Of a stretch of 64,000 nt of DNA, positions 45 to 58,853 are shown in pieces (the first letter of the stretch is position 1; every line of letters begins with the position of its first letter). The notes under the pieces were generated by a model, which was not told the DNA's origin, ran no database searches, and saw nothing but the letters and a program-made list of their open reading frames with translations. Where the stretch lies: positions 40,989,001 to 41,053,000 of the forward strand of contig CM039512.1 of assembly GCA_022432975.1 (NCBI GenBank). The letters run 5' to 3'. This stretch comes from Begonia masoniana. Taxonomy: Eukaryota; Streptophyta; Magnoliopsida; Cucurbitales; Begoniaceae. Made by a program: the position numbers and the translations under genes.

Positions 45-855
45 GTGAAAAAGTTTGAAGTGAAAGGAGCTCAAAGTGCTAAGAAGACCAGGTAAGTGAA
101 TGTATTAAGATTTTCGGCTAATAGAGCCCTACATCGTGGGAGTACTAGGTTGTTTTAGATGTCTGATGTTTACCTTATGATGATGAGCTTGTCTGCACTT
201 GAAGGATTGATGAATGATGTGAGTTATGCTATTTGATGACCTGCTAGTGAATGTGAAGTTGTCTGCTCTGATAAGATCCTTGTCATAGTCTGATGGGTTA
301 AAAGTTCTCATGTTCATGCATCATGAATGTTTCTCAAGCATAAGAAAATGTTTTAATGCATGTTTTCCATGAACAAGATATGTATGTATATATGTATATA
401 TATAAGATTTATGCAACGTGGATTAAGTGAGGGTTGGGGGCGGTTCGGCTTATGTCGCAGTCCAAAGAAGGACATATGAATACAACCCGCAGTAGGGAAC
501 AAGATCAAACTCACTGTCGAACCCCCTTTACCGGCACAAATCCTCTCTTAATCCACACAACTTATATGAATGATGAATATGATCAATGACTATGAATGAT
601 GAATATGATCAATGACTATGAATGATGAATATGATCAATGACTATGAATGATGAATATGACCAATGACTATGAATGATGAATATGATCTATGACTATGAA
701 TGATGATTTCAAGCAAAGATATGAACAAGAAAAAGACTTATGAGCATGTGATTTTCCCAAACTATACATTCATGCATCCATGTTAGTGTTGCATTCCTTA
801 CCAAGCATTAGGCTTATAGTTTAAACCTTATGATGTAGGTGACGAGTTTTCAGGT
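45..855 (+). other. Putative spliced-leader module, element 1 5' LTR
   Basis: Acceptor TTTTAG at 39-44, 47-nt segment 45-91 ending CCAG, donor GTAAGT at 92, acceptor GATGTAG ending 838, 15-nt segment 839-853 ending CAG, donor GTGAGG at 854. CTTAT upstream of the second acceptor could be a branch point. The positions are seen; splicing itself is inferred. Confidence 0.55.
564..705 (+). repeat. 26-bp tandem repeat in element 1 LTR
   Basis: About five units of a 26-bp ATG-rich motif (core GAATGATGAATATGATCAAT), period 26 (for example 601 to 627). It lies inside the putative second LTR intron (92-838). The matching array in the 3' LTR is near 7791-7930. Confidence 0.9.
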
Positions 856-2140: not shown

Positions 2141-2288
2141 AAAAATCGGATTCTAAAACCGATTCTGCAGACTGCCTTCCAGCACTGACTGTCACATGAG
2201 CACACTTCAGCAACTGTAAGTATTTATGATTTCAGTATACGTCATTAAGTTACGATATATCTGTAATGATTTGTTTAAGAATCCCAAA

Positions 2289-6747: not shown

Positions 6748-6908
6748 TGTAACACCCGACAACTTCAACTAGGTGACTCCCTAACTGTATTAACGGTCAT
6801 GAATATTCAATCTTCACGGTTTAGAGTTTTATACCAAGAATAATTAATTTCATGTGAATTTAAACTAGGTTGAGTGGCAAAGTTGTAATAATGGAGGGAG
6901 ATGACCAC

Positions 6909-6917
6909 TATATAAAG
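6909..6917 (+). promoter_or_regulatory. TATA box of element 1 LTR promoter
   Basis: TATATAAAG, followed within about 30-40 bases by a CT-rich segment (about 6945-7071) with no ATG. This is the expected layout of an LTR RNA polymerase II promoter and transcript start. The exact start site is not visible. Confidence 0.7.
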
Positions 6918-7071
6918 AAAAAGGAAATGTTTTAAACCTCACTTGAACCACTGTAGCCGACACCTTCCTTTTCGGCGATTTCTTCTCTCCCAAGCTCTTG
7001 CTCTCTGCTTTCAGCATACCCTCTTCGACGATCGGGTTTCTCTGCCACTACTCGACTACTCCGTGCCCGAG

Positions 7072-8081
7072 GTAAGCAATAGACAACGTAGCTATCTGTT
7101 AATTCGTTAGCCCTGTTTTCTACTCGGCATTGGAGTTTTGGGTTTTTCAATGGCCAACTAATAATAAGAACATTTGAAATCTGAGAGTGGGAATGACTCT
7201 TAGCTATTAGACCTTAGGATGACTTGAGATTAGAACTATTAGGATTTTGTTTTAACTACTGCAATGTAAATGTTTTAGGTGAAAAAGTTTGAAGTGAAAG
7301 GAGCTCAAAGTGCTAAGAAGACCAGGTAAGTGAATGTATTAAGATTTTCGGCTAATAGAGCCCTACATCGTGGGAGTACCAGGTTGTTTTAGATGTCTGA
7401 TGTTTACCTTATGATGATGAGCTTGTCTGCACTTGAAGGATTGATGAATGATGTGAGTTATGCTATTTGATGACCTGCTAGTGAATGTGAAGTTGTCTGC
7501 TCTGATAAGATCCTTGTCATAGTCTGATGGGTTAAAAGTTCTCATGTTCATGCATCATGAATGTTTCTCAAGCATAAGAAAATGTTTTAATGCATGTTTT
7601 CCATGAACAAGATATGTATGTATATATGTAAGATTTATGCAACGTGGATTAAGTGAGGGTTGGGGGCGGTTCAGCGTATGTCACAGTCCAAAGAAGGACA
7701 TATGAATACGACCCGCAGTAGGGAACAAGATCAAACTCACTGTCGAACCCCCTTTACCGGCACAAATTCTCTCTTAATCCACACAACTTATATGAATGAT
7801 GAATATGATCAATGACTATGAATGATGAATATGATCAATGACTATGAATGATGAATATGATCAATGACTATGAATGATGAATATGACCAATGACTATGAA
7901 TGATGAATATGATCTATGACTATGAATGATGATTTCAAGCAAAGATATGAACAAGAAAAAGACTTATGAGCATGTGATTTTCCCAAACTATACATTCATG
8001 CATCCATGTTAGTGTTGCATTCCTTACCAAGCATTAGGCTTATAGTTTAAACCTTATGATGTAGGTGACGAGTTTTCAGGT
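7072..8081 (+). other. Putative spliced-leader module, element 1 3' LTR
   Basis: First donor GAG|GTAAGC at 7072, acceptor TTTTAG ending 7278, 47-nt segment 7279-7325, donor GTAAGT at 7326, acceptor GATGTAG ending 8064, 15-nt segment 8065-8079, donor GTGAGG at 8080. The region between the TATA box and the first donor has no ATG. Confidence 0.6.
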
Positions 8082-9432
8082 GAGGAACTCAAGGTTAATG
8101 AGGATGTCTAAGCTTGGTTGCTGGAGGATGCTCAGTGTGACAGTGCAAAGCTGGATAGGCGATTAAGTTCCCTGGTTATGCTCATAGTAAGTCAGAGTAG
8201 TTTATCATAAACAAATGACTAAATAGAACATAATTTCTTATAACAATGAGATTCGGATTTGAATGGTTTGACTTTAGAGTCTGAATACGACTTAAGGATT
8301 ATTGAATGGTTGTGTTGCTTAAGTCTTCCGCTATGCGTATTTTGGATGAATTTATGATCCTTACTCTTTGAGGTTTATAGTTACTAAGTTAAGAATCAGG
8401 TGAGTTGTGATATGTTCTATCGAATGAAGATGTTTGATGATTATAGTGTTTTACTGCCGTATGATAGAAGCTGGATGAGGCAATCATCCGGCTGACGTCA
8501 TCGGCAGATGTAGTGTTTAAGCCATCGGATGATGAAAGTGCTATTTTGTCGCCTAGCGATCGGCAGATGTAGTGTTTAAGCCATCGGATGATGAAAGTGC
8601 TATTTTGTCGTCTAGCGATCGGCAGATGTAGTGTTTAAGCCATCGGATGATGAAAGTGCTATTTTGTCGTCTAGCGATCGACAGATGTAGTGTTTAAGCC
8701 ATCAGATGATGAAAGTGCTATTTTGTCGTCTAGTGATCGGCAGATGTAGTGTAATAAGTCACCGGAAGATGTAGTTTGTTTCTTCACCCGATGATGTAAA
8801 TGTTAACTTGTCGTCTAGCGTTCGGTGGATGAAGTGTATTTCTTCACCGGATGCTGGGAATGTTATTTTGTCGTCTAGCGTTCGGTGGATGAAGCGTATT
8901 TCTTTGCCGGATGATGTAAATGGTATTTTGTCGTCTAGTGTTCGGTGGATGAAGTGTAATTCTTCACTGGATGATGTAGATGTTAAATTGTCGTCTAGTG
9001 ACCGGATAATGTGAGTATTTTCTTATTGTTTAAACTCAGGAAATGTTTTAAATCGGTCACGTGAAGCACACATGTCCACCGGTCAATGTAGGGTAAATAT
9101 GAACATCTAGTGGAGAATGTTCGGGACCGGGCGATGTCTTTAATTAGGCACGTGCAATGCCCGTGACCATCGGCGGATGTCTATTGCTGGTTGAGATCAG
9201 AGGTGTCACGTGGCGGACACGTGATCATCGGTCGATGTGAGACTATAACTCTATCGGTGGATGCAGATCATGAGATGTTTTAAAAAAAGAGAGAAAATAA
9301 AGAGGGAATAATATTAACAATAATAATGAATAATGTGTATGGAAGCAAGAATCAAATGATTAAGAGATCAAATAATGAATTTGTGTGGCGATTCCGTTGG
9401 GGTCGTTACAAAAATCCCCACTCAAAATGAGG

Positions 9433-10085: not shown

Positions 10086-11129
10086 ACCTGCTTCGATATC
10101 ACCTAAACCATACAGACACACTATGAGATAAAAATCTCAGTAAATCCTACGTAAATGTAGATGCGTGCAGTGCACATGGAGTTCAGAAATCATGCATACA
10201 TACAGAGCGTCGCAGACAGAATATCACCGAGATCTCATCTCCCTAACCGAAGGGGGCCCATCCAGCGGTCGGACTACCCCGTGCGGTTAGAGGAGGGGGG
10301 TACATGCTTACAACACGTACAGCCGTGCCTAAGCCCCACCTCGCGTGACCAGATAACAGATTACGTTCATTAATTACATTACATGAGATGTGGTATCGGC
10401 CAGACCCTTAATCAGCCCGCACGATAGATCAAGAGCCCCCAATTTCTGGGCCACATGGTTTTATGAAAACATCGTGCAGAAATTCATTTTTCATGACAAG
10501 TTAAAATACGTGATGCATGAACAGTTCAAGATAAATGTAAACAAACAAACATGTGTACCATCAAGACTATAAAAGAAATAACCTACAAACGCTTAAACCT
10601 AACTACCCAACCAAAGCAGTGAAACTCACAATACTCTAAGATCCTCGACGCGACATCGAAGTACGGTGTAGGCCAATTGGCCAGAGTAAGTCACGAGAAC
10701 TTACCTCGTGCCCGCAGCAGCTCAAGCTCCGTCCACGAGTGTTGTTTGTCTGAGGCAAAACACAACATTCGCCATTAAAACTAGTTTAAGCTAATAACGT
10801 CCAAATTAAACGAACTCTCAACTAAGGAAATTCTCCTAAAATACTAACTTAGCTCAATGAGGCGTTTTCATCCATCAAATAACGCTCAATACCTCGAAAT
10901 TCCTATTAACGAGTTTTCCCCCAAAACTCGGAAATTGTAAAATCTAAAACATTTGTCCTAACTCAACTAACTTTACCCAATAACGCTCAATACGTTTATT
11001 TCACTCACGGTTATGATAGAGCTATCGATTTCGAGTCCTAATTTACGTTTTTCACAAAACCTAAACGGAACCCTAATATTCAACTCCGTGAAGACCAAAA
11101 ACTAATGTTATAGAATCATAGACTCATAC
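10086..11129 (-). other. Putative spliced-leader module, minus-strand LTR 9411-11691
   Basis: Read on the minus strand: donor CTAG|GTATGA at 11129, acceptor GCCTCAG before 10749, 45-nt segment 10749-10705 ending ACGAG, donor GTAAGT at 10704, acceptor GGTTTAG, 15-nt segment 10102-10088 ending GCAG, donor GTGAGG. Same order and spacing class as the plus-strand LTR at 36983. Confidence 0.5.
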
Positions 11130-15258: not shown

Positions 15259-15547
15259 TGTAACGCCCCCGAACTCACCCAGGCTCAGTGCGCTACTTGG
15301 TTCACTCTTTTCACGTTTAAAACGAGATTTAAAATAATTTTTGATAAAATTTCGACTCGATTTTTGGGTTTTTCGAACCCTCAAAATTTGTTGGAAAACG
15401 TGCCCAAAATACGTGCAAAATGTGCCGGAAAAGATTTGATTAAAACATAGTAGAAATAGGAAAATTATTAAAAAAATTAAAATTTTGTATGCTGAGCACC
15501 TCACGCGCGCATCGTGTGCGCATCGCGCGCGCCACAGCCCGCACGCT

Positions 15548-15588
15548 GGTGCCGATCAATCGGCATTAGGCGCCGATTGATCGGCACC
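15548..15588 (-). repeat. Perfect 17-bp hairpin in solo LTR
   Basis: Arm GGTGCCGATCAATCGGC, seven-base loop, perfect complementary arm. It lies in the GC-rich U5 end, the same relative place as the hairpins of the other LTR families. An adjacent CGATCGATTGG continues the theme. Confidence 0.85.
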
Positions 15589-16154
15589 CTCTCGGGTGCG
15601 CGATCTACATCTGTCGATCGATTGGCGCTGGGCGCTGCGCACGCCCAGCCTGCGCCCTGCGCGCTCCTCCCACGCCCTGTGCACCACCAGCGCCCTTCTT
15701 CCAATTTTTTCATTTTTCCTTCAAACCACTCACACCCAAATCACTCAAAATTTATCCCAAACTTTCCCGACATTTTCGACTCCTTGACCCGTAAATTTCT
15801 CGGAAAACAGACTCCAAAACGTCAGCGAAAACAAGAAAACAAGTGAAAACTAATGTCGTTTATTTCATAAAAACCCGAGCAGCAGAACGGCTAAATTTTC
15901 TAAAACCAAAAATCCTGAAAAATAAATATTTACCAACAATTTCAAATACTTCCAAAACAACATACACAATAGTTTTAAGACCATGATCGTTTAAAAATAA
16001 AATCCCACCACGACTACTAATATACAATCAAAATACCAATCTCATCCCTCACGACTCCCAGAGGACCATGATCAAGACGCCTCGACAAATACCTGCACCG
16101 GCATACCTCGAGCGTCGCCGACTGCTCCTAGTCTTGGGCTTCCTCAACTAGCTC

Positions 16155-17491
16155 ACCTGCCTTAACGTCTCCACCTACACCACAGAATACAAAACGTAAG
16201 CCTAATGCTTAGTAAGTAGGGAATAATGGATGCAAACACATACAATGCACACACACCCTAGCACATGCAGTTTCTACTCACTCTGTTATTCTTGTATCAT
16301 TTCCATATTTTTACTCTATCACCTAGCAGTATGGATCAAGTATGCGCACATCCTATATCATCTACGATGTCCCCACTTTGACCCAACAGTGCGATATCGG
16401 AGGGCCATATCCAAGTCCAGCTCCAAGGATAACCATACCCGATCTCCTAACACACATCCGAGTCCATCTCCAAGGATGCATTTCCATCCGAGTCCCGCTC
16501 CAAGGATTGCCCTACCCCAAACTCCTGGCATACATCCGAGTCCAACTCCAAGGATGCATTTCCATCCGAGTCCCGCTCCAAGGATGGCACCAGGCACACA
16601 TCTGAGACCATCTCCAAGGATGTGTTTCCATCCGAGTCCCGCTCTAAGGATGGCACTACCCAATATCCTCGCATACATCCGAGTCTAGCTCTAAGGATGA
16701 CACTACCCAATCCCCAAACGTTTCATGATCACCGTTCCCACACATTTCATGCTCACCGTTCAACCATACTCAAAACTCATTTTTTTCGTAGTTCGAAAAC
16801 AATGATGCATGTCACACAAATACTAGACACAAAACAAAACACAAAAACCAAACAAGCAAGCAATCCTACCGTTCCATGGTGTAGGTCCGAGGGCACAATC
16901 ATAAACAACTTCTACTTACCTGGATTCCTCGCACGTATTCGCTTACTCCAAGTCACTAATCACTTGCTCGTTAACCTAACATTCATAGATGAAAATGACT
17001 TAGCAACATTCTATAAATCTAAACTAAGTCGAACAACCAATTTTAAAAACCTAAACCCTAAAACCCAAAATTCTCACATTTTCTATCGTCCAACTTCAAT
17101 CGGCCATAACTCACTCGTTTTTCAACGAATTTTGACGTGCCACCTCATTCCGTAAACCTCTATACGTCTACTATCCATTGAAACAATCAAATTCAAAAAC
17201 CAAACACCATGGCCAATTCAAAATCACCGAAACAGATTCGGTCCCTTAGATCAACAAACCCGATTTTTGAAAAATTCACACCAAAACTCTAATCTCTCCC
17301 TAAAAATAACCTAAACTAATCTATCTAAGGTTTAAACTTTCAATTTAGCAAGAAAACATAGCAATCAAATAGAATTTTCGGAGTTACCCTTTACGGTTTC
17401 TCAAACCCTTACTAAAACTCACCAAAAACACATTAAACTACCTAAAATCACTAAAGGGTTGTATAGATTACAAAACCCAACCAAAATTTAC
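16155..17491 (-). other. Putative spliced-leader module, solo LTR 15259-17934
   Basis: Minus strand: donor AAG|GTAAAT at 17491, acceptor ATGTTAG, 56-nt segment 16975-16920 ending TCCAG, donor GTAAGT at 16919, acceptor GGTGTAG, 18-nt segment 16174-16157 ending GCAG, donor GTGAGC. Confidence 0.55.
16380..16705 (-). repeat. Tandem repeats in solo LTR
   Basis: Several units containing CATCCGAGTCC and CTCCAAGGATG, with mixed short spacers. The overlapping open frames on both strands here (87-152 codons) are created by the repeat and are not genes. The array lies inside the putative second LTR intron (16175-16919). Confidence 0.85.
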
Positions 17492-17934
17492 CTTAAACCC
17501 TTGAAGAAATTGGAGGAAAGATGAAGATGAAACCCTCCATGGCTGCCTTCGTGGGAAAGGGGGAAGAAGACAATGAATTTTGTCTTCTAACCTTTAAACT
17601 TTCCTCTTTTTAAAAACCTACTTTCACCTTTTACATTATAACCACAACAAATCAAATTTTTTTACAAATCAACCCCACCCCTTCACCCCTTTTCTTCTTC
17701 CTCACGTGATGCTTCTCTTCTTTTCACCTTTAAATTTTGTTTATTCATTTCTTTATTAGTTCACTTTTAACTTAACACACACAACTCCAATATCTTACTT
17801 TATTCCTAGGGTTGTCACTCACATCTTCACTTTCTAACTCTTATACCAATATAACTCTAGGATTGATGCTAAAAACCTCATAACATAACCTAACTTAAAG
17901 CTACATACGTTAGGGAAAAAATCTTGGTGTTACA

Positions 17935-21805: not shown

Positions 21806-23063
21806 GTAAAAACTTTATGGGTTTTGGTTTTTGTAACTTTGGAGGAAGATTAGGAGTGTTTTTAGGGTGTTTTGTGGGGGATGGCATAGGGTTTGGAAAC
21901 TCTAGAATGTGAAGTGCGAAAATTGGGTTTAAATGTTAGATTTCTTCCCTATTTTGATGATTTGGTTGTTGAATGACTTGGTTTAGGTAGATGTTAGGGT
22001 TAGATTGAAGATTGGTGAAGTGTTCCACAAAAATGGTTGAAGAACACCTATATACCCGATTCTGTTTGCTGGATTTTCGAGTTGGCCAATTACTTTGTTT
22101 GGTTACATTGAGTGATTCAATGGATAGTAGACGTGTAGAGGTTTCTGAGTTGGGGTGGCACGTCGAAATCCGTTGAAAAACGAGAAAGTTATGGCCGTTT
22201 AAAGTTGGACGTCGGTAAATTTCATAAAAATCGGGTTTGGTGTGTTGGAAATGATTTGTGTCATAATCTAGTTAGTTTAGGTTAAGAATTTCTTTAGTTT
22301 AGTTAGTTGATTTCCATAGAATCTTTTAGTTTGTTATTAAGTAAATTTTCGTTATTTTAGGTGATCGAACGTGTGATTTGATCGGACGAAGTGAACGGGA
22401 ACGTATCGAGAAACCAGGTAAGTAGTGGATGAGTGTTTGTTGCCTTCGGGCCTACACCATAGAACGGTAGGGATTGTTTGTTTATTTGTTATGCTTTGCT
22501 TTTGTTACGCATCGGGTGTCATGCATCATTGTTTTCTAAACTACGAAATCACGAGTTTTGCATGTTTGAGTGGTGAGGATGATGTGGATGAAAGATAAGA
22601 AGTGATATGCAACTTGGTCTCGAGTAAAATAGCTTCGTTGGGCAAGTGGCTCGTTGAGCACCCCGCGAGGGATTTTATTCGAGATGCCCTGCTAATGTAC
22701 GTAATGTGTTGTGAGTATGAATACCTCGACCTGTTCATGCTTGAAGTGCACAATGAGGATTCTACGATCGATTGGGGGAGATTCGTGTTGGCCGTCCTGG
22801 ACTGTGTTGGGACGTGTGCCTCCGGTCTAGCTCCGTGGATCAAGGCGTGGCCGTCCTGGACTGTGTGGGGGCGTGTGCCTACTTGATTCACCTGAAAGTG
22901 AAAGATAAATGCAACCGAAACGAAAAGAAAACAACAGAGTGTGTAGAAACTGCATGTTAGGGTTGAGTCGAGCATTTAGTATGTTCTGGTGCATTTCCCT
23001 ACTTGCTAAGCATTAGGCTTACGTTTTGTGTTCTATGGTGTAGGTGACGAGTTCTCTACAGGT
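21806..23063 (+). other. Putative spliced-leader module, solo LTR 21333-24109
   Basis: Donor AAG|GTAAAA at 21806, acceptor ATTTTAG ending 22360, 57-nt segment 22361-22417 ending CCAG, donor GTAAGT at 22418, block GCATTAGGCTTAC then acceptor GGTGTAG ending 23043, 18-nt segment 23044-23061 ending ACAG, donor GTGAGA at 23062. Confidence 0.6.
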
Positions 23064-33513: not shown

Positions 33514-33835
33514 AGAAAATCTTTTAGAGTTTATTGAAAGCTTATCGATTTGAGTTTCCGTGATTTTAGGTCGTCGGACGAGTGATTTGGACGGTAATTG
33601 GACAAGTGATTTGGACGAGCATTCAGGTAAGTAGTGGTAGCTTTTCCTTCGCCTTCGGGCCTACACCATAGAATGGTAGGGTTATTTATTTCGTGTTGCG
33701 TTGTGTTGTTGTTTCGTGTGGTTTGGCATCTTTGAAGCATGCATCAGGTATAGCACGTTAGGTACGCTTAATGGCATTGTTTGGCATTGTGAGCGAGCAC
33801 GAATGTAAGCAAATAAAGTTAATTGTAAATGCATC

Positions 33836-34165
33836 TCGAATAGTGTGCCTTGTCGGGCTGAGGTTGCTAGTAGTAGCACCCCGAGGGGACTCTATGAGAG
33901 ATGACCGGCTAAAGCACATATTGCATTTCGAATGGTGTGCCTTGTCGGGCTGAGGTTGCTGGTAGTAGCACCCCGAGGGGAACTCCATGAGAAATGACCG
34001 GCTAAAACACGAGATCCTGAATAGTGTGCCTTGTCGGGCTGAGGTTGCTGGTAGTAGCACCCCGAGGGGACCTCTATGATGGATGATTGGCAAAACATGA
34101 AATTCTGAATAGGGCGCCTTGTCGGGCTGAGGTTGCTGGTAGTAGCACCTCGAGGGGTCCTCTAT
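33836..34165 (+). repeat. Four tandem units of about 90 bp in solo LTR
   Basis: GTGCCTTGTCGGGCTGAGG recurs near 33843, 33939, 34026 and 34115 (the last copy begins GCGCC). Each unit has the self-complementary CCCCGAGGGG and a TGCT/AGCA stem. It lies inside the putative second intron (33627-34313). Confidence 0.88.
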
Positions 34166-34867
34166 GAAGAATTAAACAATTAAAGCAATGAACAGCAAAT
34201 AAGCACAACTGAGTGATAGAAACTGCATGTGTTAGGTTGATTGCATCATGAGTCGCCTTTGTTTGCCCTACTTGCTAAGCATTAGGCTTATGTTTTTGTG
34301 TTCTGTGGTGTAGGTGACGGAGCGTTCTCAGGTGAGCTCGAGAGAGACGACCAGGATTAGTAGCGGTCGGTGATACATGGAGCTTGCTGGTTTGTGCATT
34401 TGTCGGGGCGCTTCGACCTAGTTCTCGGAGTGTGGTTCGTATTGGAGTTGTAAAGGTCTATGGTTAGTTTTGTGAGTTGATTGAGTGGATATGTTTTGTG
34501 GTGGTTTTCTGGTTGGTGTTGGTGGTTGTATGTTTATTTTGTGGTTTGATATTTGGGGTATGATATGTGTGGGAGTTTTGGGTTTTGTGGTGGATTTGTA
34601 TAGATTTTATTTTGTAGTTGGAGATATTTTGGTTAGTTTGGTTAGTCTGGATTGATGTTTATAGAATTGGGTGATACTGGTTGGAATTGTGATTTTAAAC
34701 GTTGTTTATTTTCAAGTTTTCGATTTCGAAACTTTTAGGCGTTATATTGCCGTTTTTTTTTAAGTCAAATATTTTATGAAAATTATTTTAAATTTCCAAT
34801 TTAAACGCGGGGTTGGCTAGCAAAGTAGTGCACCGAGCCGGGGTGGGTTCGGGGGCGTTACACTCCC

Positions 34868-36982: not shown

Positions 36983-38604
36983 TGTAATACTCGGCTATAC
37001 GGAATACTAATATTTTAATGTAAATGGTATTTTTGTAAATATGTCGAATCAAAGCGGTTTTGTAAAAAGAAAGCATCATTACGATCCTAATAATTAATAT
37101 GGATTTTTGGAAAATTTCAGGAATTTTAGGAGTCGTAACGCTAATTTTACGAGAATTACGTTTATCGTCATATAAAGGATACTTCAGTAAAAATAGTAAA
37201 TGAGATCCGTTTTGCGAACGGACAATTTTAATGGAACCCTGATAATAAGCTGAAGTTATTAGCGAAATAAGGAGATTTGGAGAAACCGAATCGTAAGACA
37301 ATTAACGAAACGAAGGACGAAACAAATAGAAAATCAAAGGAAGGGCAAAAAGGTAATTTGCCAGGACAATTTTTTAATTAAAAACACAATTCTCTTCTTC
37401 TTCTCCCTCCTTCACGAATTCTCTCCGTCCTCTGCGATTTTGTCAGCGACTCACTTCTCCCTCACGACGTTTCTCATTCCGACAACCGTTCTTCCCTCTG
37501 ATCGTCTCGATTCTTCGCGATTTCTTCCCCAATCCCGACCCTAGGTACGATTCTAAGGTTTTAGCAAAGTTTGTTTCAGTTTTTACGGAGTTTAAACGAT
37601 TAGGGTTTGTTTAGGGTTTCGTTAAAAACGTGATTTATGATTCGAAATCGATAGGTTTATCGTAGTTGTGGATATATTGACGTATTAAACGTTAATGGAC
37701 AAATTTTAGAATGTATGCAGTGTTTAGGTCGGAAAACCAGATTTTGAGGTTGAGAAATCTCCATTAATGGAGTTTTGTAAATTCGCGAGAGTGAATTGCT
37801 CGATAAAATGCTTCAATGAATCAAATTAAGGCTTTAGGAAATTTCCTTAGTTAATGTTTCGTTAAATTTGGACGTTTAATAGTTTAAACTCATTTTAACG
37901 AAAATATTGTGAAATTGCCTTAGGTGAACGCTTGTGGACGGAGCTTGGATTGCATCGGACACGAGGTAAGTTCTCGTGACTTACTGTGGCCGATTGGCCT
38001 ACACCGTACGTCGATGTCGTCTCGAGGAGTTTTGGTGACGTGTTTGTTTAAATCGCTTTGGTTGGGTAATTAGGTTTAGTCGTTTATAGGTTATGTCTTT
38101 AATTGCTTTTATTGTCTTAATGGTACGTATGATGCATGTTTAATTATGCTATAAATTGTTCACGCATCACGTATTTTAAAGGAGCATGAAAATGAATTTC
38201 CGCACTATGTTTTAAAGAAAATGGCGATGTGGCCTGAAAGGGGGCTATTGATCTATTGTGTTGATCGATTACGGGTCTGTCACAATACCACATCTAATAT
38301 GAATTGATGTATGTTTATGGTCATGCGAGGTGGGGCTCAGGCATGGCTGTGTGTAACACCCGGTTTTACGGGATTTTTTAATTCCATAATATAATAGCAT
38401 TTTTATACATAAGTCAAATTAAGTCCGTTTTGCAAGCAAAAAGTGTTATTAGAATCCTAATGATTTATATGGATTTTAGGAGAAATACGGAATTTAACGA
38501 AGTTTCGAAAAGGCCAAAAACACGTGTGGGCAAAATGGTAATGTTAATTTTATTATATTATTATTATTTTTGTTTTAAAAGAAAATGTAATTTTCTTTTA
38601 AAAA

Positions 38605-38633
38605 CAACTGAATGGCCTGAAGCCATTCAGTTG
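38605..38633 (+). repeat. Perfect 12-bp hairpin in leader of LTR 38352
   Basis: Arm CAACTGAATGGC, five-base loop, perfect complement. Unlike the other families, the hairpin is in the putative first exon, before the first donor. Confidence 0.85.
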
Positions 38634-38776
38634 CTCCCCGCGAGCGAAGAACAGGGCAGAGGGAGGGGGAAGCGCTGGCGATGATCGGCGGAGCAAACCG
38701 CCATGTTTTTCGACACTCTCCGGCCAGACGGCGGCGACGAGCAAGTTTTGGCCCATCTCCGCGCACAAAACGAACG

Positions 38777-40063
38777 GTGAGCCCTATTCTTGCCTTGTTT
38801 TCGGTTCGGTGGTGGCTGAAGGTGACGAGCTTGTTTTGGCTCCGATCATCGGCTGTTTTTGGGTGGTCATGGCTCGAAATTGCCGGACATTAGGCCGGCT
38901 TTAGTCGCCTAGCCGTGGGGAGCCCAATTTTGGCAAAATTCAGTAAGCCTGATTTGGGCATTTCGGGTTTTCTGTGAGTAGCCTCTGAATTTTGGTTAGT
39001 TTATGTTAATTAGGTATGAGGGGGATTGATTGGTGAGGAATCTGGTGAGAATTGATGGAAAATCGAAATGGGGAAATTTCCCTGGTTAGGACAGTTTGCC
39101 TGATTTGACCTAGCTACGGTCGTTTGTTTTGAAATTCCTTTTGGCAGGTTAAAATAGGTTATTAGAGGAGTACATGGCCACTGGAATCGTTCGATTTTGA
39201 TAACCGACGCGAAAATTATGTGCGTTTGAAGTTTCGGGTCGGTTTTTACCGAACCCAAATTAGTGGCCGTTTAGTTAGGTTTTAGTTGGATTAGGCTAGA
39301 AATAGTAGTTTGAGAGTAAATTGGTGAATGTAAGCGTGATTTTAATGAAACTTGAATGTTTTTCATAGGTTGAGCCATAGGCGACGAGATGTGCCAAAAC
39401 CAGCGAACTACGGAAGACAGGTAAGTTCTCGTGATCTTCTCTGGCCGATTGGCCTACACCGTACGTCGAGGTTGTTTTGAGGAATTTGGTGATGCACTTG
39501 TTTATATTGCTTTGGTTGGGTAGTTAGGTTTATTTGTTTTATAGATTATGCTTTACAGTCTTGATGGTATACATGATTGCTTGTTTACTTTCTGTCATAT
39601 TGAACTATTCACGCATCACGTGTTTTAAAAGAACAATAGAAAATGAATTTCCGCACCACGTTTTATAGAAAATGGCGATGTGGCCTGGAGAGGGGCTATT
39701 GATCTATTGTGTAGGCTCGAAAGGGTCTGTCACAATACCACATCTATATTGTAGTCATACAGTTTACAGTTTACAGTTTACATTTTACAGTTTATAGGTC
39801 ACGCGAGGTGGGGCTCAGGCACGGTTGTACGTGTTGTAAGTGTGCACCCCCCTCCTCTAACTGGAAAGAGTAGTCCGCCCGTTGGATGAGCTCTCTCCGG
39901 TTAGGGGGATAGGATCTCGGTGACACCTACAGTGCATCATAAAGTAAAGAAAATGACGCATGGTTTACGAACTCACACGCACAACATGCATTTACATTTA
40001 TGAGTCTTGCTGAGATTTTTATCTCATAGGTGTCTGTATGGTGTAGGTGATCTGGATACAGGT
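38777..40063 (+). other. Putative spliced-leader module, LTR 38352-40726
   Basis: Donor ACG|GTGAGC at 38777, acceptor TTCATAG ending 39368, 52-nt segment 39369-39420 ending ACAG, donor GTAAGT at 39421, acceptor GGTGTAG ending 40046, 15-nt segment 40047-40061 ending ACAG, donor GTGACT at 40062. Confidence 0.55.
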
Positions 40064-41536
40064 GACTACGAGATCCCTCCACCCGAGGAATGATCAGTTG
40101 AAGAAAGATGGCCCGTGGTAGTGTGCTGAGCAGTCGGTGCGCATTTTGACCCGTGGGGATGTAAGTAAAGGTATTGAGAGGTTTTGGGTTAATGATGGGT
40201 TAGTTAGATGAAACTGTATAGTTGAACATATTAGGATGTTTGGTTCTGGTTAGCTGATAGATTGATGTACAGATGTGTTGGCTAACTGTTTTATAAGGCG
40301 TTTTGTTAAATTAGTTATTTAAATGATATGGAACTGCTTGGTATTTTCTTTGAAACAGGAGGATATGTTAAACTTTCAAACGGAACCACGCAGTTTATTT
40401 TCGTGAAAATGTACTTTGTTATAGTTGTGTTTCGAGTCGGTTTTGTGGTGGTATTTTGGAAGACGTATGAGTATCGGGTGCTTGATGTTAAGTTGTATTG
40501 TGAAGCATATGTTTGTGAGGTGGATAGAAATTGTGGTATAGATAGAATTGTGTTAGTGAAATGGTGAGGTTGTATTTTGTAGGTGTTTGGATACGTATTG
40601 TTTTAAATAATTGTTTTGTAATTGTTTTAAACGTTTTATTAAATTGTTTTCCACTTAAACGCTAAGTATAAAAGAAAAAGAAAAATATAGTACGGGAAAA
40701 TCGGGTACAGTGTTTGAGGCATGACACTGTGTGTGTTGCAAGCATGTACCCCCCTCCTCTAGGTGGAAAGGGTAGTCCATCTGCAGGATATGCCCTCTCC
40801 ATTTAGGAGGTTGAGATATCAATGACAACCTATGTAAAGAGAAGAAAATGTTGCATGATTTACGAACTCATATGCACAGCATGCATTTGCATTTACGAAA
40901 CTTGCTGAGATTTTTATATCATAGATTGTCTGTATGGTGTAGGTGACCTTGACTTAGGTGAGGACGAGATCCCTCCACACGAGGAGTGATGCAGTTGACA
41001 GAGGATGGCTCGCGGGGGTGTGCTAGCACAGTCGATGCTTAACCTGACCCGTGGGGAGTGTACGTGCGTATTTTGAAGGTTTTGGGGATTTTTGGGTTAA
41101 TGATGGATTAAATAGGTTGGTTGTACAACTAGATACATTTTACGTTGTTTGGATCTGGATTAGTTGATAGGTTTATGTTTTTAAACGTTTTAGAAACTAG
41201 TTTTGTAAAATGTTTGGTAATAGGGATATGTTCGGTTTTTAAACATATCTATGCAGTTCGTTTTCATGAAAATATATTTCGTTCTAAACATTTTTCGAGT
41301 CGGTTTGAATGAGGTTATGGAGGAGGTACGAGTATTTGGGGTTTTATGTTAAATTGTATTTTGAAAATATATGATGTGTTAATGATAATTGGAAAAGTAG
41401 TGTATGTGTTAATTGTTTGTAGGTATGTTGTGCAAGGGAGGAAGGAAAAACAAGGGAAAAGAAAGAAAAAGGAGGGGGGGGGGGGTGGGGGGGAAGGCAG
41501 AGCGCCTGGCGACCAATCGCCAGGAGTGGCGATCAA

Positions 41537-42559: not shown

Positions 42560-43262
42560 GTAAGCTCTACGTTTTGGTTAAGTTTATTTGTGATTTAGGG
42601 TTTATTTTAGTTTAGGGTTTTGAACGAAACTTAGGGCTTTTGTTAGGAATCGTTAGGGTTGATTATTTATTACTCATTAATGATGTATTAGTAATTATTG
42701 AGGTAGTTTTAGTAGATTGATGATGTTGGTTGAGAATTAATGTTAAGTCTAGGTTGTTGAAAATGATTTGAAGGACATTAATGGAGTTTTAAAGCTTGTG
42801 AACACCAAGTGTTTGATGAAATGCCTAGGTGAAGGGAAGTAGAGTGTTTAGAAGAATTTGTTCTAGCTCGTGAAGACAATTTGTTAGATTTAGTGTACGA
42901 GAGTCAATGTTAATGGTTTGTTGTTAAATGCCTTAGGTGACCCAAGCTCAAAGGACGGTGCTCGGCATTGCTAGGATTCCAGGTAAGTGAGCGTTAGGCT
43001 TTCCGGCCACTAAGGCCCTACGTCGTACAATGTTGATGATGTTTGATGTGATGAATAAGGTGGAAATAGGGATTGGTAGAAAGGACGGGTAGTTTTAGGC
43101 AGTGCTTTAGTGATTTTAGGTAGTACTCTAGTGATTTAAGTAGTGCTCGTTGATAGGTTTTTCCTTACGTATGTATTACCTCATGCATCATGTTTTACTA
43201 GAGTGCATACGAACTATTTATGAGCATGTTTTATGAAAATGTTGAATTAAAGAATGATAACC

Positions 43263-43293
<31 letters not shown>

Positions 43294-43520
43294 GATAAAT
43301 GAACTACGGGGCAAGTCATGAATGAACTACAGGGCAAGTCATGAATGTACTACGGGGCAAGTCACGAATGTACTACGGGGCAAGAAAACGGTTTAAAAGA
43401 AATGAAACGAAAATGTTTTATAAATGTCATGCATTTATGTAAAGTTATGTTTAGTACGCTCTTTACTAAGCATTAGGCTTAATGTAGTTATTGTATGATG
43501 TAGGTGACGAGAACGAAGGT
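42560..43520 (+). other. Putative spliced-leader module, solo LTR 42129-44544
   Basis: The CT-rich leader (about 42405-42559) has no ATG; donor AGG|GTAAGC at 42560, acceptor GCCTTAG ending 42936, 46-nt segment 42937-42982 ending TCCAG, donor GTAAGT at 42983, block CTAAGCATTAGGCTTAA then acceptor GATGTAG ending 43503, 15-nt segment 43504-43518 ending GAAG, donor GTGAGG at 43519. Confidence 0.62.
43255..43385 (+). repeat. Short tandem repeats in LTR intron 2
   Basis: GAATGAT units followed by about four copies of a 28-bp unit with ACTACGGGGCAAGTCA. They occupy the same relative place as the tandem arrays of the other LTR families. Confidence 0.85.
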
Positions 43521-47096: not shown

Positions 47097-48047
47097 AAGA
47101 CTCTACTAACCCAAGTGCTTGGTCTCATTTTTGGGTGATTTACGATTAGGGTTTTCGGATAGGATTTTGATAAATTGTGTTTTCGTGTTAGAAATTGTTA
47201 AGGTTGCAATATTTATGATCTTTGATGATAGATTAGGAGTTTTTATCAATGGTTATGTTGAAATTTGGGGTTAAACGATATAAAAGTCAAATAGGGCTTG
47301 TTGGTAAGTAGGTGAGCATAACGTGCTCGACAAAATGCCCGAATGAAGAAAATAAAGTTTTAGGAAAGAATTTCCTTAGTTAGGAGCTTGGTTTAAGTTT
47401 GGAATTCGTTCATTTAGGATCGATTTTAATGCCCTTATTTGTGAAATGCTTTAGGTGGAGACGACCCTTCGGACGGTGCACGGCTTGCTACGGACGCCAG
47501 GTAAGTGGGTACTAGGTTTTCGGCCCTTAAGGCTCTACATCGTGTCAATGTTAGGCTTTTGTTGTTTTGATAATGATTTTCTGATTGTGAGGTTTAATGA
47601 GTTGGGTAGCCTAGGATGTTAATTATTAGTTGATTGTAAAGTTCGTTAAAAGTAGTGTACGTCCATGTACGTTGTGAATTGTTTGGTGATATGTTTTGAT
47701 GATATGTTATACGTAGATTCCTCATGCATCATGTTTTCTCAACGACATATGAAATGTTTTACATGCATGAAAATGAAATGATTAAGTAAGATGGGGTGGT
47801 ATGGCCATGAACAACAAAACCGTCCAACTCGAGGGACCATGAATCACTGTCCATATTGGACCATGAATACGGCCGAAAGGACTATGTACACGCACTTGCC
47901 TACCTTCCCCAACACGATTCATGTTATGAAAAAGAATAAGTTTTATGAATTCATGCATTCATGGACATGTAAAGTATACTGCATCCCCTTACTAAGCATT
48001 AGGCTTAATGTTTTATGTTGTATGATGTAGGTGACAGGTGTGAAGGT
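47097..48047 (+). other. Putative spliced-leader module, solo LTR 46536-48950
   Basis: The leader (about 46930-47096) has no ATG; donor TAG|GTAAGA at 47097, acceptor GCTTTAG ending 47454, 46-nt segment 47455-47500 ending GCCAG, donor GTAAGT at 47501, block CTAAGCATTAGGCTTAA then acceptor GATGTAG ending 48030, 15-nt segment 48031-48045 ending GAAG, donor GTGAGA at 48046. Confidence 0.62.
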
Positions 48048-49779: not shown

Positions 49780-51980
49780 TGTAACGCCCCGAGTTATCTG
49801 AACCCGGTTCGCTACTCATTACTTGATCATAACTAAGAAATTTTGAATAAATTTAAAACTTCATTCGACATTCAAAATTTGACATTTTCTAAACGTTCAA
49901 AACATTTGAAAACTTTGCAGCGGAAAATTATTTAAAACTACAATGGGGATTTAACTAGCTGTGAAAATATTGTTGGAAAGGTTAATGGAAATGTTTAAAG
50001 TATTCGGTCAAGAGAAAATAAGGTTTTAAAATGATGGACTACTCAAGGAATTACAAAAGTCAAATTCATCTGCCGACGACAAAGTCAACGGAAGGAGCAG
50101 AAGCAGAAAACCAAAGGCTTCTGCCGATGACGTCCACACAACTTCACCCACAACTTCATCTGCCGATGAAATCATGGTAACTTCACACACCACTTCATCT
50201 GCCGATGAAGTTAACATAACTTCATCTGCCGATGAAGTCAGCACAATTTCATCTCCCAATAGACAAACACACTTCATCTTCCGATAACAACAATATGACT
50301 CCACGCCTTCCGATTCGCTAAACGACAAACGGGTTACTCTACACCTTCCGATTCGCTAAACGACAAACGGGTTTCTCCCTCTTCCGATGGAATGGACTAC
50401 ATCTGCCGACACGTGCTACTCACGTAACTCCTTAAAGCATCTACTGATAGACTTTAAAATTTACATCTTCCGATGGCTTTTCTGAAGACATCTTCCGATA
50501 GAATTTAAAAATTTACTCAACATCTACCGACAGATATCATCTGTCGATAGAGAGCAAAACAACAACTCTAATCGCTTCACTTGCAAATCCAGTAATAAAC
50601 CAACAGAATACTAAATTCAGAGAAAACTAAGATTACTTTTGAAAACTTCAAGTAACTCATTCTTGCTAAAACTAACCAGAGACAATCCAAACCTTTGTGT
50701 CACTAGAAACTCATAAGTACTATCTTGAAATCCCAACAGAATATCGTTATCAGAGAAGAAACTCAAAAGCGAATTCCAAAACATTAAAATTTCTACTGTC
50801 ATGAAAGCTCAGTATAATAAATTTGAAATACTGTCAATTAATCTTTGTTAGTCAATGACACAAGTCAAACCGCCCCATCAGATGCCTGACCGTAGCACAG
50901 CCGTGCTCCACCAACCTCATCTACTCGGTTATGCTCTCAGGGAAATCACCTGCTGTATCCTCAACACCTACATCACAAAACTCATCTATTAGCCTAATGC
51001 TAAGCAAGTAGAGCATTAATGAAATGTATGCTGAAACATAAACCCTGATCATGCAGTTTCTAATTTTCTTAACTCAGTTGTGCATCGTTCATAAACTGGT
51101 CTGATCCCTAAGTTCCCTTGGGAGTGGGATCGGTTCTCCCAATGTAATAAATCCTCTACTCAGTTAAGGGGCGGATTACTTCCCTTAACAGCTAATACAG
51201 ATCCCTTAATTCCCTTGGGAGTGGGATCGGTTCTCCCAATGTAATAAATCCTCTACTCAGTTAAGGGGCGGATTACTTCCCTTAACAGCTACTCTGTTTC
51301 ATTCAATTCATACTCATCATAACCTTGCACATAAATTCATTTTCGTAATTCTTCAAAAACTTAATGCATGACATAAAGAAAAGAAACACTCAAACATGCA
51401 TAAACCTACTGTTTTGTGATGTAGGCCCGAAGGCTCACACATTACTTTACTTACCTGGCTCCTGGAAATCGCTCGGCTATATGTTACTCCAAAAATCTGC
51501 TCACCTAAAACCATTGACAGATTATGGATTAGATCTCCACTAAACTTTATCTAACTACTGAAGTCTAAGGAAGCCAGTTTGGGGCTCTACTGATTAAGCA
51601 TTCCCGATACATCACTAAACCCCAAAACCCAAATCTCTCACCCGCAGCTTATCGAAGATACATACATTGCAATCCTTCAGCTACCCTAGCACTAGAACGG
51701 CAAGTAGTTGATTCAAAACTCACCTTGGTTGGGGAAAACCGGAGGGGAAATCGCCCAGAGGTAGTCTGCTTGAGCTGAGAGGTAAGAGTAATAATACAGT
51801 GGCGGCTAAACCTCACTAAACCTTTCCTTAAATACCTTATCCACAATATAAATTCGCAATTACCACTTTGCCCCTGCCTAGTCATTTACAACCTAATCAA
51901 CATTTCACTAAATTTTAACCATAAAAATTATATTCTACCGTTTAATAACTTATTTTGATTTATTGAAACCGGGTGCTACA
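49780..51980 (-). repeat. 3' LTR of element 2 (2201 bp)
   Basis: On the minus strand TGTAGCACCCGG to ...GGGGCGTTACA. It has two copies of the 97-bp unit at about 51095-51295 and hairpins of the type ACTTCATC-TGCC-GATGAAGT near 50190-50240. Confidence 0.95.
50948..51723 (-). other. Putative spliced-leader module, element 2 3' LTR
   Basis: Minus strand: ATG-free leader above 51724, donor AAG|GTGAGT at 51723, acceptor GTTTTAG, 50-nt segment 51504-51455 ending GCCAG, donor GTAAGT at 51454, acceptor GATGTAG, 18-nt segment 50967-50950 ending GCAG, donor GTGATT. Confidence 0.6.
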
Positions 51981-56653: not shown

Positions 56654-58853
56654 TGTAACGCCCCGAGTTATCTGAACCCGGTTCGCTACTCATTACTTGA
56701 TCATAACTAAGAAATTTTGAATAAATTTAAAACTTCATTCGACATTCAAAATTTGACATTTTCTAAACGTTCAAAACATTTGAAAACTTTGCAGCGGAAA
56801 ATTATTTAAAACTACAATGGGGATTTAACTAGCTGTGAAAATATTGTTGGAAAGGTTAATGGAAATGTTTAAAGTATTCGGTCAAGAGAAAATAAGGTTT
56901 TAAAATGATGGACTACTCAAGGAATTACAAAAGTCGAATTCATCTGCCGACGACAAAGTCAACGGAAGGAGCAGAAGCAGAAAACCAAAGGCTTCTGCCG
57001 ATGACGTCCACACAACTTCACCCACAACTTCATCTGCCGATGAAATCATGGTAACTTCACACACCACTTCATCTGCCGATGAAGTTAACATAACTTCATC
57101 TGCCGATGAAGTCAGCACAATTTCATCTCCCAATAGACAAACACACGTCATCTTCCGATAACAACAATATGACTCCACGCCTTCCGATTCGCTAAACGAC
57201 AAACGGGTTACTCTACACCTTCCGATTCGCTAAACGACAAACGGGTTTCTCCCTCTTCCGATGGAATGGACTACATCTGCCAACACGTGCTACTCACGTA
57301 ACTCCTTAAAGCATCTACTGATAGACTTTAAAATTTACATCTTCCGATGGCTTTTCTGAAGACATCTTCCGATAGAATTTAAAAATTTACTCAACATCTA
57401 CCGACAGATATCATCTGTCGATAGAGAGCAAAACAACAACTCTAATCGCTTCACTTGCAAATCCAGTAATAAACCAACAGAATACTAAATTCAGAGAAAA
57501 CTAAGATTACTTTTGAAAACTTCAAGTAACTCATTCTTGCTAAAACTAACCAGAGACAATCCAAACCTTTGTGTCACTAGAAACTCATAAGTACTATCTT
57601 GAAATCCCAACAGAATATCGTTATCAGAGAAGAAACTCAAAAGCGAATTCCAAAACATTAAAATTTCTACTGTCATGAAAGCTCAGTATAATAAATTTGA
57701 AATACTGTCAATTAATCTTTGTTAGTCAATGACACCAGTCAAACCGCCCCATCAGATGCCTGACCGTAGCACAGCCGTGCTCCACCAACCTCATCTACTC
57801 GGTTATGCTCTCAGGGAAATCACCTGCTGTATCCTCAACACCTACATCACAAAACTCATCTATTAGCCTAATGCTAAGCAAGTAGAGCATTAATGAAATG
57901 TATGCTGAAACATAAACCCTGATCATGCAGTTTCTAATTTTCTCAACTCAGTTGTGCATCGTTCATAAACTGGTCTGATCCCTAAGTTCCCTTGGGAGTG
58001 GGATCGGTTCTCCCAATGTAATAAATCCTCTACTCAGTTAAGGGGCGGATTACTTCCCTTAACAGCTAATACAGATCCCTTAATTCCCTTGGGAGTGGGA
58101 TCGGTTCTCCCAATGTAATAAATCCTCTACTCAGTTAAGGGGCGGATTACTTCCCTTAACAGCTACTCTGTTTCATTCAATTCATACTCATCATAACCTT
58201 GCACATAAATTCATTTCGTAATTCTTCAAAAACTTAATGCATGACATAAAGAAAAGAAACACTCAAACATGCATAAACCTACTATTTTGTGATGTAGGCC
58301 CGAAGGCTCACACATTACTTTACTTACCTGGCTCCTGGAAATCGCTCGGCTATATGTTACTCCAAAAATCTGCTCACCTAAAACCATTGACAGATTATGG
58401 ATTAGATCTCCACTAAACTTTATCTAACTACTGAAGTCTAAGGAAGCCAGTTTGGGGCTCTACTGATTAAGCATTCCCGATACATCACTAAACCCCAAAA
58501 CCCAAATCTCTCACCCGCAGCTTATCGAAGATACATACATTGCAATCCTTCAGCTACCCTAGCACTAGAACGGCAAGTAGTTGATTCAAAACTCACCTTG
58601 GTTGGGGAAAACCGGAGGGGAAATCGCCCAGAGGTAGTCTGCTTGAGCTGAGAGGTAAGAGTAATAATACAGTGGCGGCTAAACCTCACTAAACCTTTCC
58701 TTAAATACCTTATCCACAATATAAATTCGCAATTACCACTTTGCCCCTGCCTAGTCATTTACAACCTAATCAACATTTCACTAAATTTTAACCATAAAAA
58801 TTATATTCCACCGTTTAATAACTTATTTTGATTTATTGAAACCGGGTGCTACA
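56654..58853 (-). repeat. 5' LTR of element 2 (2200 bp)
   Basis: Nearly identical to the 3' LTR. Diagnostic variants here (GTCGAATTC near 56935, CACGTCATC near 57147, TGCCAACACG near 57280) are shared with the third copy at 61546, not with the left LTR. Confidence 0.95.
57822..58596 (-). other. Putative spliced-leader module, element 2 5' LTR
   Basis: Same signals as in the 3' LTR: donor at 58596, 50-nt segment 58377-58328, donor GTAAGT at 58327, 18-nt segment 57841-57824. Being the 5' LTR, this copy would actually be transcribed ahead of gag. A further acceptor, CCTGTGCAG, lies just before the gag ATG (about 56508-56516). Confidence 0.6.

What the first reader, a model, noticed from the sequence alone, without database searches (positions are those of the whole stretch)
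6900..8081. Shared multi-intron splice architecture with 42-57-nt microexons inside all long LTRs
Seen directly: ten distinct long LTR insertions (twelve LTR copies, both strands, several diverged families) have the same ordered signals: GT donor after a CT-rich leader; YYTTAG-like acceptor; a segment of 47, 45, 56, 57, 57, 42, 52, 46, 46 or 50 nt; AG|GTAAGT donor; then an acceptor (T)GTAG or TTTAG 490-750 nt later (split by an insertion in one). Microexons: 7279-7325, 10705-10749(-), 16920-16975(-), 22361-22417, 33570-33626, 37924-37965, 39369-39420, 42937-42982, 47455-47500, 51455-51504(-). The surrounding sequence has diverged, so the signals look selected. Inference: transcripts are spliced within R/U5, giving a translation mRNA distinct from unspliced genomic RNA. 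I know introns in plant gypsy elements such as Ogre, but not this LTR-embedded layout.
Basis: partly seen in the sequence, partly recalled or inferred. Interest (0 to 1): 0.87.

Follow-up and report, generated by a model that had tools for sequence, protein, structure and literature searches.

The report
Folded intron inside plant retrotransposon repeats
The long end-repeats of a very abundant family of plant jumping genes carry two introns, and the second has both of its cut sites held in a conserved RNA knot, which may decide whether a transcript is spliced or kept whole for copying.

Summary
The window's own genome (795 Mb, unnamed) shows more.

(1) Intron 2 (A copy 7326-8064) has a covarying long-range fold that starts at donor base +1 and ends at the acceptor. 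P1 pairs the donor GTAAGT with a block ~40 nt before the acceptor. P3 pairs a block ~30-45 nt after the donor with the acceptor TGTAG|G. Hairpins P2 and P4 lie between; P1 and P3 cross (pseudoknot). G.U far exceeds A.C, so it is sense RNA. Eleven of 12 loci picked by the 5' half alone have the 3' half.

(2) The 5' block occurs 40,063 times (reversed control 0).

(3) Splicing is supported: one solo LTR with a 5-bp target duplication lacks both introns; a second copy lacks intron 2. Such copies were rare in the patterns searched.

Best reading: a splice-or-fold switch. Unspliced, folded RNA is the usual genome; spliced RNA is a separate pool. A role in translation is not shown: ATGs remain after exon 3. 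Exons 2-3 share a coding-like frame without a start codon found. No RNA data.

The parts
6748..9410 (+). 3' LTR of element A, which holds the focal feature; its 5' LTR is cut by the window start (1-2125)
   Evidence: TGTAACACCC...CGTTACA; 94.9% identity between 1-2126 and 7235-9411
6940..7071 (+). exon 1 of A (start approximate, about 30 nt after TATATAAA at 6909), CT-rich leader
   Evidence: transcription start inferred
7072..7278 (+). intron 1 of A
   Evidence: GAG|GTAAGC ... TTTTAG|GTG; loss of the equivalent intron in L105
7279..7325 (+). exon 2 (microexon, 47 nt) of A
7326..8064 (+). intron 2 of A, with the pseudoknot at its two ends
   Evidence: loss of the equivalent intron in L105 and L106
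7326..7337 (+). P1 5' strand: donor GTAAG(T)GAATGT
7349..7363 (+). P2 hairpin GGCT-AATAG-AGCC (approximate span)
7362..7375 (+). P3 5' strand CCTACATCGTGGGA
8016..8027 (+). P1 3' strand TGCATTCCTTAC
8028..8042 (+). P4 hairpin CAAGC-ATTAG-GCTTA
8052..8065 (+). P3 3' strand, ends on the acceptor ATGTAG|G
8065..8112 (+). start of exon 3 with a 15-codon open frame (GDEFSGEELKVNEDV, stop)
92..838 (+). intron 2 in the 5' LTR of A
10103..10704 (-). B: intron 2 with pseudoknot; exon 2 at 10705-10749
16175..16919 (-). C: intron 2 with pseudoknot; exon 2 at 16920-16975; LTR 15259-17934
22418..23043 (+). D: intron 2 with pseudoknot (P3 15 of 15 paired); exon 2 at 22361-22417; LTR 21333-24109
33627..34313 (+). 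E: intron 2 with pseudoknot; exon 2 at 33570-33626
37966..40942 (+). F: intron 2, split by the insertion of element G; the halves of P1 and P3 still match across the insertion; exon 2 at 37924-37965
39421..40046 (+). G: intron 2 with pseudoknot; exon 2 at 39369-39420
42983..43503 (+). I: intron 2 with pseudoknot; exon 2 at 42937-42982
47501..48030 (+). J: intron 2 with pseudoknot; exon 2 at 47455-47500
50968..51454 (-). H, 3' LTR of a young element (LTRs 99.6% identical): intron 2 with pseudoknot; exon 2 at 51455-51504
57842..58327 (-). H, 5' LTR: intron 2 with pseudoknot
2216..2279 (+). candidate small intron between PBS and gag ATG of A (ACT|GTAAGT ... AAG); relatives have TAG or CAG at the acceptor
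   Evidence: coordinates counted by hand

Best explanation
The LTRs of these Ty3/gypsy elements hold the first exons of the element's own transcript: a CT-rich exon 1, intron 1, a 42-62 nt exon 2, intron 2, and exon 3 running into U5. Intron 2 carries a long-range RNA pseudoknot whose two helices begin at donor base +1 (P1) and end at the acceptor (P3). P1 covers the same GTAAGT that U1 snRNA must bind, and P3 covers the acceptor AG. So each transcript is either spliced, which removes the whole fold, or folds, which hides both splice sites and keeps the RNA whole as the genome for reverse transcription. Shown: the signals, the covarying fold, intron loss at the exon borders in two genomic copies, and the rarity of such copies in the patterns searched. 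Inferred: that the fold competes with U1, that it sets the ratio of spliced to unspliced RNA, and that the spliced pool serves another purpose such as translation.
For: Signals: 10 of 10. P3: 13.7 of 15 positions paired on average in the ten window families; own partner better than swapped partner (p 1e-4). RNAduplex own/cross over 40 distinct of 47 loci: P1 -11.0/-8.4, P3 -20.9/-17.8, 0 of 5000 permutations; window families alone P1 -10.95/-6.37, P3 -19.7/-14.2, 0 of 20000. Named-structure count on 26 hand-picked of 47 sequences: 94.6% of cells paired (shuffled 90.2, slid 31.5-43.6), covariation 0.252 against 0.175, 0 of 500. In P3, G.U 46 against A.C 9 cells. Blind test: 12 loci taken by the 5' block alone, 11 have P3' and P1' (P3 above all 100 shuffles in 10, tied in 1; P1 below all 50 shuffles in 8, tied in 1, not in 2). 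Splicing: L105 is a solo LTR with TSD GATCT in which exons 1, 2 (57 nt) and 3 are joined; L106 has exons 2 and 3 joined and keeps intron 1. Rarity: 10,933 unspliced sites against 0 junctions. Exon against intron: G+C 0.49/0.34/0.52/0.42/0.51; ATG 7 against 22.4 expected in exons, 247 against 117 in intron 2.
Against: No RNA data. The fold was never seen to act: it could serve packaging, export or stability, or help splicing. L105 shows that spliced RNA can be reverse transcribed, so the fold is not strictly needed for that. Many ATGs remain after exon 3, so the spliced leader is not a clean translation leader. The patterns behind 10,933 and 0 differ in length (27 and 38 letters, both up to 3 mismatches), and the junction pattern covers only one exon 3 type among the 10,933. 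For P1 taken alone some measures do not exceed their shuffles (pairs changed on both sides 288 of 500 without the bulge; with it 40 of 500, and pair types 179 of 500), and P1 is weak in L047. Ten of 50 loci taken by the acceptor block lack the 5' half. No close unspliced sibling of L105 is among the loci held (best matches about 70-76%), so its exactness rests on the exon borders.
Confidence: 0.55

Rival explanations
1. The pseudoknot is a genome-RNA mark (packaging, dimerisation, export or reverse-transcription signal). It sits inside the intron so that only unspliced RNA carries it, and it does not itself steer splicing.
For: The whole fold lies inside intron 2, up to the first exon base. 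Spliced templates are rare among insertions in the patterns searched.
Against: The fold starts at +1 and ends on the acceptor in all ten window families, closer than a mere mark needs. L105 arose without it.
Confidence: 0.25
2. The fold helps splicing: it loops out the 320-900 nt centre, which holds minisatellites in several families, and brings donor and acceptor near each other.
For: Loop length and repeat content vary widely while the ends stay.
Against: The donor GTAAG and the acceptor AG are themselves inside helices, which should hinder U1 and the second step (established knowledge of splicing).
Confidence: 0.15
3. Ordinary 5' UTR introns kept for expression (intron-mediated enhancement), with no special switch.
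For: CT-rich leader, T-rich intron 1, consensus donors.
Against: Does not explain covarying long-range helices of 8-13 bp (P1) and up to 15 bp (P3).
Confidence: 0.04
4. Exons 2 and 3 belong to a small conserved reading frame, and the introns are kept mainly to make its mRNA.
For: Stop after 15 codons in 37 of 47 loci. In the 57-nt exon 2 set (18 distinct) 4 stops of 324 codons against 19.9 in shuffles, and single codon differences 331/178/430 at positions 1/2/3; exon 3 (24 distinct) 439/190/611.
Against: No start codon found; exon 1 has an in-frame stop in several families. Exon 2 starts with an in-frame stop in 26 of the 27 A-family exon 2 matches read. The sequences are related, so the counts are not independent. 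No gag/pol donor in the right phase is shared.
Confidence: 0.2
5. No splicing: the signals are parts of an RNA structure and the two intronless copies are chance deletions.
For: The acceptor TGTAG is explained by pairing with CCTACA.
Against: Losses at the exon borders of both introns in one LTR and of intron 2 again in a second copy; AG|GTAAGT in 10 of 10 (CAG in 8), of which the exon part lies outside the helix.
Confidence: 0.03
6. A self-cleaving or self-splicing ribozyme; the order of helices recalls that of HDV-like ribozymes (recalled).
For: Pseudoknot with its 5' helix starting at a fixed site.
Against: No Rfam family for it at gathering score in the window, and none credible at E<=10 in 7260-8130. 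P1 is 8-13 bp, usually with a bulge, and I saw no short helix in the place of P3 of HDV (not searched for). Exact exon joining points to splicing.
Confidence: 0.02

Closest known systems
[quoted passage not shown]
   Same: Partly spliced intron in a plant Ty3/gypsy element
   Different: Ogre's intron is internal, between reading frames; here the introns are inside the LTR, in R/U5, and have a covarying fold
EVADE and BARE spliced short GAG RNA (PMC12786077 and PMC7730604, passages seen)
   Same: Splicing separates RNA pools in plant LTR elements
   Different: Ty1/copia, splice within the coding part; the review states that plant LTR elements generally lack introns, with Ogre and EVADE as notable exceptions
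CRM4TR cDNAs of maize (PMC3648361, passages seen)
   Different: Satellite transcripts, no general layout and no fold described in the passages seen
HIV-1 5' leader with its major donor in hairpin SL2 (recalled, no call)
   Same: A donor held in RNA structure of the unspliced genome; splicing and packaging are coupled
   Different: Local hairpin, not a pseudoknot over both ends of an intron several hundred nt long
CaMV and other pararetrovirus leaders (shunt recalled; leader and export noted in PMC12786077)
   Same: Long structured leader
   Different: Ribosome shunt over a hairpin, no covarying intron ends (recalled)

Membership tests
Spliceosomal (U2-type) GT-AG intron | GT donor and AG acceptor | tested here: met
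   10 of 10 window families; second acceptors
Spliceosomal (U2-type) GT-AG intron | Precise removal in RNA | tested here: met
   Indirect: L105 (both introns) and L106 (intron 2) lack them at the exon borders; RNA not available
Spliceosomal (U2-type) GT-AG intron | Branch point | tested here: inconclusive
   YTNAY-like motif near -22 of intron 2, seen by eye, overlaps hairpin P4
Ty3/gypsy (Metaviridae) element | gag, protease, RT, RNase H, integrase in this order | tested here: met
   Pfam on the H and A frames searched apart; listed relatives are plant Ty3-gypsy-like proteins
Chromovirus, Tekay/Del clade | Chromodomain at the pol end | tested here: inconclusive
   PF00385 not reported at E<=0.001 for the H or A pol ends, though some listed relatives carry it; clade placement by a tree not done
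Ogre-type intron | Intron between gag-protease and RT frames | tested here: not met
   These introns lie in the LTR
Known structured RNA family (Rfam 15) | Match at the curated score | tested here: not met
   Only 5S rRNA in the window; nothing credible in 7260-8130

The most novel reading that the evidence does not exclude
A splice-or-fold switch built into the LTR: in tens of thousands of plant retrotransposon copies a pseudoknot that begins at the first and ends at the last base of an intron competes with the spliceosome, so that folding marks an RNA as genome and splicing marks it as message.
Probability: 0.45. Interest if true: 0.93.

Novelty: new variant of a known kind. Interest (0 to 1): 0.87.

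Why it matters
How one retroelement transcript serves both as message and as genome is an old question. Plant LTR elements are described as generally intronless (PMC12786077). Here the two fates would be tied to one visible fold, with tens of thousands of natural copies for comparison and a ready assay: RNA reads over the exon 2|3 junction, and intronless LTRs as a fossil record of spliced templates.

Tried and rejected
Rejected: exon 3 as a 15/18-nt microexon with a next donor at CAG|GTGAG (both intronless copies read on past it; G and H have GTGACT and GTGATT there). Exon 1 as coding exon of the exon 2-3 frame (no ATG in phase, in-frame stops). A gag or pol donor spliced to exon 2 of the 3' LTR (no shared phase-1 donor). 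A coding exon inside intron 1 of the D-like group (the conserved block looks like hairpins by eye). HDV-like ribozyme.

Led nowhere: IMG/VR by DNA pattern and by protein gave no relative, so other plants could not be compared. Papers: ten searches (others found nothing). None of the listings or passages that I saw describes LTR introns with such a fold. One search held only a lentiviral vector paper; PMC3059260 on centromeric retrotransposons does not hold the words splic- or intron- in the main text held. Most subscription journals are not in that library.

Weak points: exon 1 of C was set 7 nt off by my search string; the donor is at 17491, not 17498. Exon 1 was taken as 120 nt before the donor in every family. 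Pair counts and codon counts come from related sequences. Choice of loci: L031-L060 are the first 30 places listed; L061-L080 were picked from that list for varied acceptor blocks; L093-L104 were picked from the first 100 places for varied 5' blocks, + strand only; the 26 rows were picked by hand from 47. In one search some first donors were probably picked wrongly (for example L038, L041, L049, L056). The D-like unspliced control count (GAGCARYCAGGTAAGTAGNGG) did not complete.

Full report
What was checked. The window is a nest of Ty3/gypsy elements and LTRs. Element A (5' LTR 1-2125, cut by the window start; 3' LTR 6748-9410) and element H (LTRs 49780-51980 and 56654-58853, 99.6% identical) have both LTRs in view. 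F is split by G. The window's own genome is held: 795 Mb in 308 contigs, unnamed; that it is a plant is inferred from the relatives of its pol.

The layout is genome-wide. CAGGTAAGTN{15,44}CCTACRYCR, the donor of exon 2 with the block behind it, has 40,063 exact matches; the reversed control has 0. The acceptor block AAGCATTAGGCTTAN{12,30}GTGTAGGTGA has 4,018, control 0.

The fold. The conserved block that starts about 30-45 nt after the donor, CCTACAYCR..., is the reverse complement of the last 13 intron bases plus the first exon base at the acceptor. Over the ten window families 13.7 of 15 positions pair. The donor itself, GTAAGT and the next bases, pairs with a block directly before TAAGCATTAGGCTTA; the second half of this helix differs between families and its partner changes with it. 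P1 has 8-13 pairs, mean 10.8, in 41 distinct loci. Between the 5' strands is hairpin P2 (GGCC-loop-GGCC or GCC-TTCG-GGC; no fold predicted for the window copy C); between the 3' strands is hairpin P4 (TAAGC-ATTAG-GCTTA; TTAGC/GCTAA in H; TGAGAT/ATCTCA in B and G; weak in F). The order P1-P2-P3 ... P1'-P4-P3' makes P1 and P3 cross. The loop between is about 320-900 nt (2.9 kb in F, which holds G) and has minisatellites in several families.

Tests of the fold. RNAduplex energies of own partners against partners swapped between loci: P1 -11.0 against -8.4, P3 -20.9 against -17.8, none of 5000 permutations as good (40 distinct of 47 loci). With the ten window families only: P1 -10.95 against -6.37, P3 -19.7 against -14.2, none of 20000. 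On an alignment of 26 of the 47 the named structure has 94.6% of cells paired (shuffled 90.2; slid by 1-3 columns 31.5-43.6), 9 pairs with changes on both sides (5.3), covariation 0.252 (0.175), 0 of 500 shuffles each; further pair types 26 (22.5, 5 of 500). P1 alone: covariation 0.258 against 0.157 without and 0.261 against 0.163 with the bulge, 0 of 500 each, but the counts of pairs changed on both sides are reached by 288 and 40 of 500 shuffles. In P3 over 34 distinct pairs of strands there are 404 Watson-Crick, 46 G.U, 9 A.C and 17 other cells; the excess of G.U over A.C (p 4e-7) points to the sense RNA strand and not to a DNA dyad. As a blind test 12 loci were taken by the 5' block alone. 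Eleven have the predicted 3' strands of P1 and P3; L102 does not. For P3, 10 beat all 100 shuffles and one ties; for P1, 8 beat all 50 shuffles, one ties, two do not. Own against cross for the 11: P1 -9.6/-6.1, P3 -16.6/-13.1, 0 of 5000. Of 50 loci taken by the acceptor block, 37 have donor and 5' block, 3 have the block with a changed donor, and 10 lack it. Rfam has no such family.

Splicing. If spliced RNA is ever reverse transcribed, intronless LTRs must exist. The D-like junction pattern GAGCARYCAG|GTGACGAGNTNTNTNCAGGTGAG (up to 2 mismatches) has two matches in the genome and none reversed; a looser pattern finds the same two. L105 (C7) is a complete LTR of 1,326 bp, TGTAACACCC to CGTTACA, between two copies of the 5-bp target site GATCT. 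It reads exon 1 (...GAGATTAAG), a 57-nt exon 2 and exon 3, with both introns absent. L106 (C2) keeps intron 1 and has exon 2 joined to exon 3; against L065, L064, L069 and L078 the match resumes at the acceptor AG. No close unspliced sibling of L105 is among the loci held (about 70-76% identity), so its exactness is judged by the exon borders. In a second subfamily the unspliced exon 2 end with donor has 10,933 matches (27 letters, up to 3 mismatches) and the spliced junction 0 (38 letters, up to 3 mismatches); the junction pattern fits only one exon 3 type, so the 0 holds for a part of the 10,933. So splicing happens, spliced RNA can be copied, and copies of it are rare in what I searched. 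The usual template is the unspliced RNA.

Leader features. Exon/intron G+C is 0.487 (E1), 0.335 (I1), 0.524 (E2), 0.416 (I2), 0.512 (E3 start). ATG counts against single-base expectation are 6/11.2, 85/114.8, 1/8.4, 247/117.0, 0/2.8, and 156/127.0 in the 500 nt after exon 3 (intron 2 of F left out). Removal of introns therefore takes out most upstream ATGs of that part but not those of U5. Between PBS and gag ATG there is a further short intron-like stretch, ACT|GTAAGT (GTAAAT in L081) ... AG right before gag, in A and H and in six of 12 fetched gene starts; in the other six the PBS pattern was not found and they were not looked at further.

A coding-like frame. Exon 3 opens with 15 codons and a stop in 37 of 47 loci, and the frame continues into exon 2 in many families. 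In 18 distinct 57-nt exons there are 4 stops in 324 codons against 19.9 in shuffles, and codon differences favour position 3 (430) over 1 (331) and 2 (178); exon 3 shows 611/439/190 in the same order. Exon 2 length, taking the shortest candidate acceptor, is divisible by three in 31 of the 45 loci that have one (47 looked at). Against this: no start codon is found, exon 1 is closed in that frame in several families, and 26 of 27 A-family exon 2 matches begin with a stop in it. I leave it open.

How it most likely works. P1 occupies the bases that U1 snRNA would bind, and P3 occupies the acceptor AG. The 3' strands of P1 and P3 are transcribed some 0.4-0.9 kb after the donor, so U1 has a head start; RNA that escapes splicing would fold and stay whole. 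Splicing removes the whole fold, so only genome RNA carries it. This is inference; the fold could also be a packaging or export mark, or help splicing.

Compared with what is known. Plant LTR elements are described as generally intronless, with Ogre and EVADE as notable exceptions (PMC12786077, passages). Ogre's intron is internal (PMC6317226, passages). Sunflower copia elements have spliced isoforms encoding truncated GAG (PMC7730604, passages). [quoted passage not shown] None of these passages mentions a fold at the intron ends. The nearest functional parallel, the HIV-1 leader with its donor in a hairpin, is recalled.

Limits. No RNA data, one genome, unnamed species, related sequences, and no tree. 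The Tekay/Del label is resemblance only: the Pfam chromodomain was not reported for the pol ends of A or H.

Noticed in passing
62388-64000, compared with 51103-51291 and 57977-58165: A satellite array of 96-97 bp units (16.7 copies to the window end) whose unit is the repeat present about twice in the intron 2 loop of H: a satellite that seems to have grown out of an LTR intron.
   Followed up: partly
18608-19520 (+) and 31172-31998 (-): Pairs of direct repeats with 5S rRNA matches (18839-18951, 19335-19439, 31249-31361, 31696-31808), as in Cassandra elements (name recalled; a reference title says that Cassandra carries 5S RNA).
   Followed up: no
33011-33513: Array of 84 TTAGTT hexamers inside intron 1 of LTR E.
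   Followed up: no
intron 1 of C, D, E and D-like loci (for example 22100-22250): A second conserved block, CAATGGATAGTAGACGTG...GGCACGTC...CGTTGAAAAACG, with possible hairpins GACGTG/CACGTC and CGTT-GAAA-AACG seen by eye; structure of intron 1 not tested.
   Followed up: partly
L095, L096, L097 after the acceptor: A longer open frame (34, 36 and 31 codons, GEFLSEEK.AAIE-like) follows the acceptor in three diverged families, with synonymous and conservative changes.
   Followed up: partly
564-706, 7790-7932, 33838-34167, 43298-43384: Different minisatellites fill the loop of intron 2 in different families while the paired ends stay.
   Followed up: partly
37966-40942: Intron 2 of F was split by element G, yet the halves of P1 and P3 still match: a natural record of the pairing from before the insertion.
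   Followed up: yes
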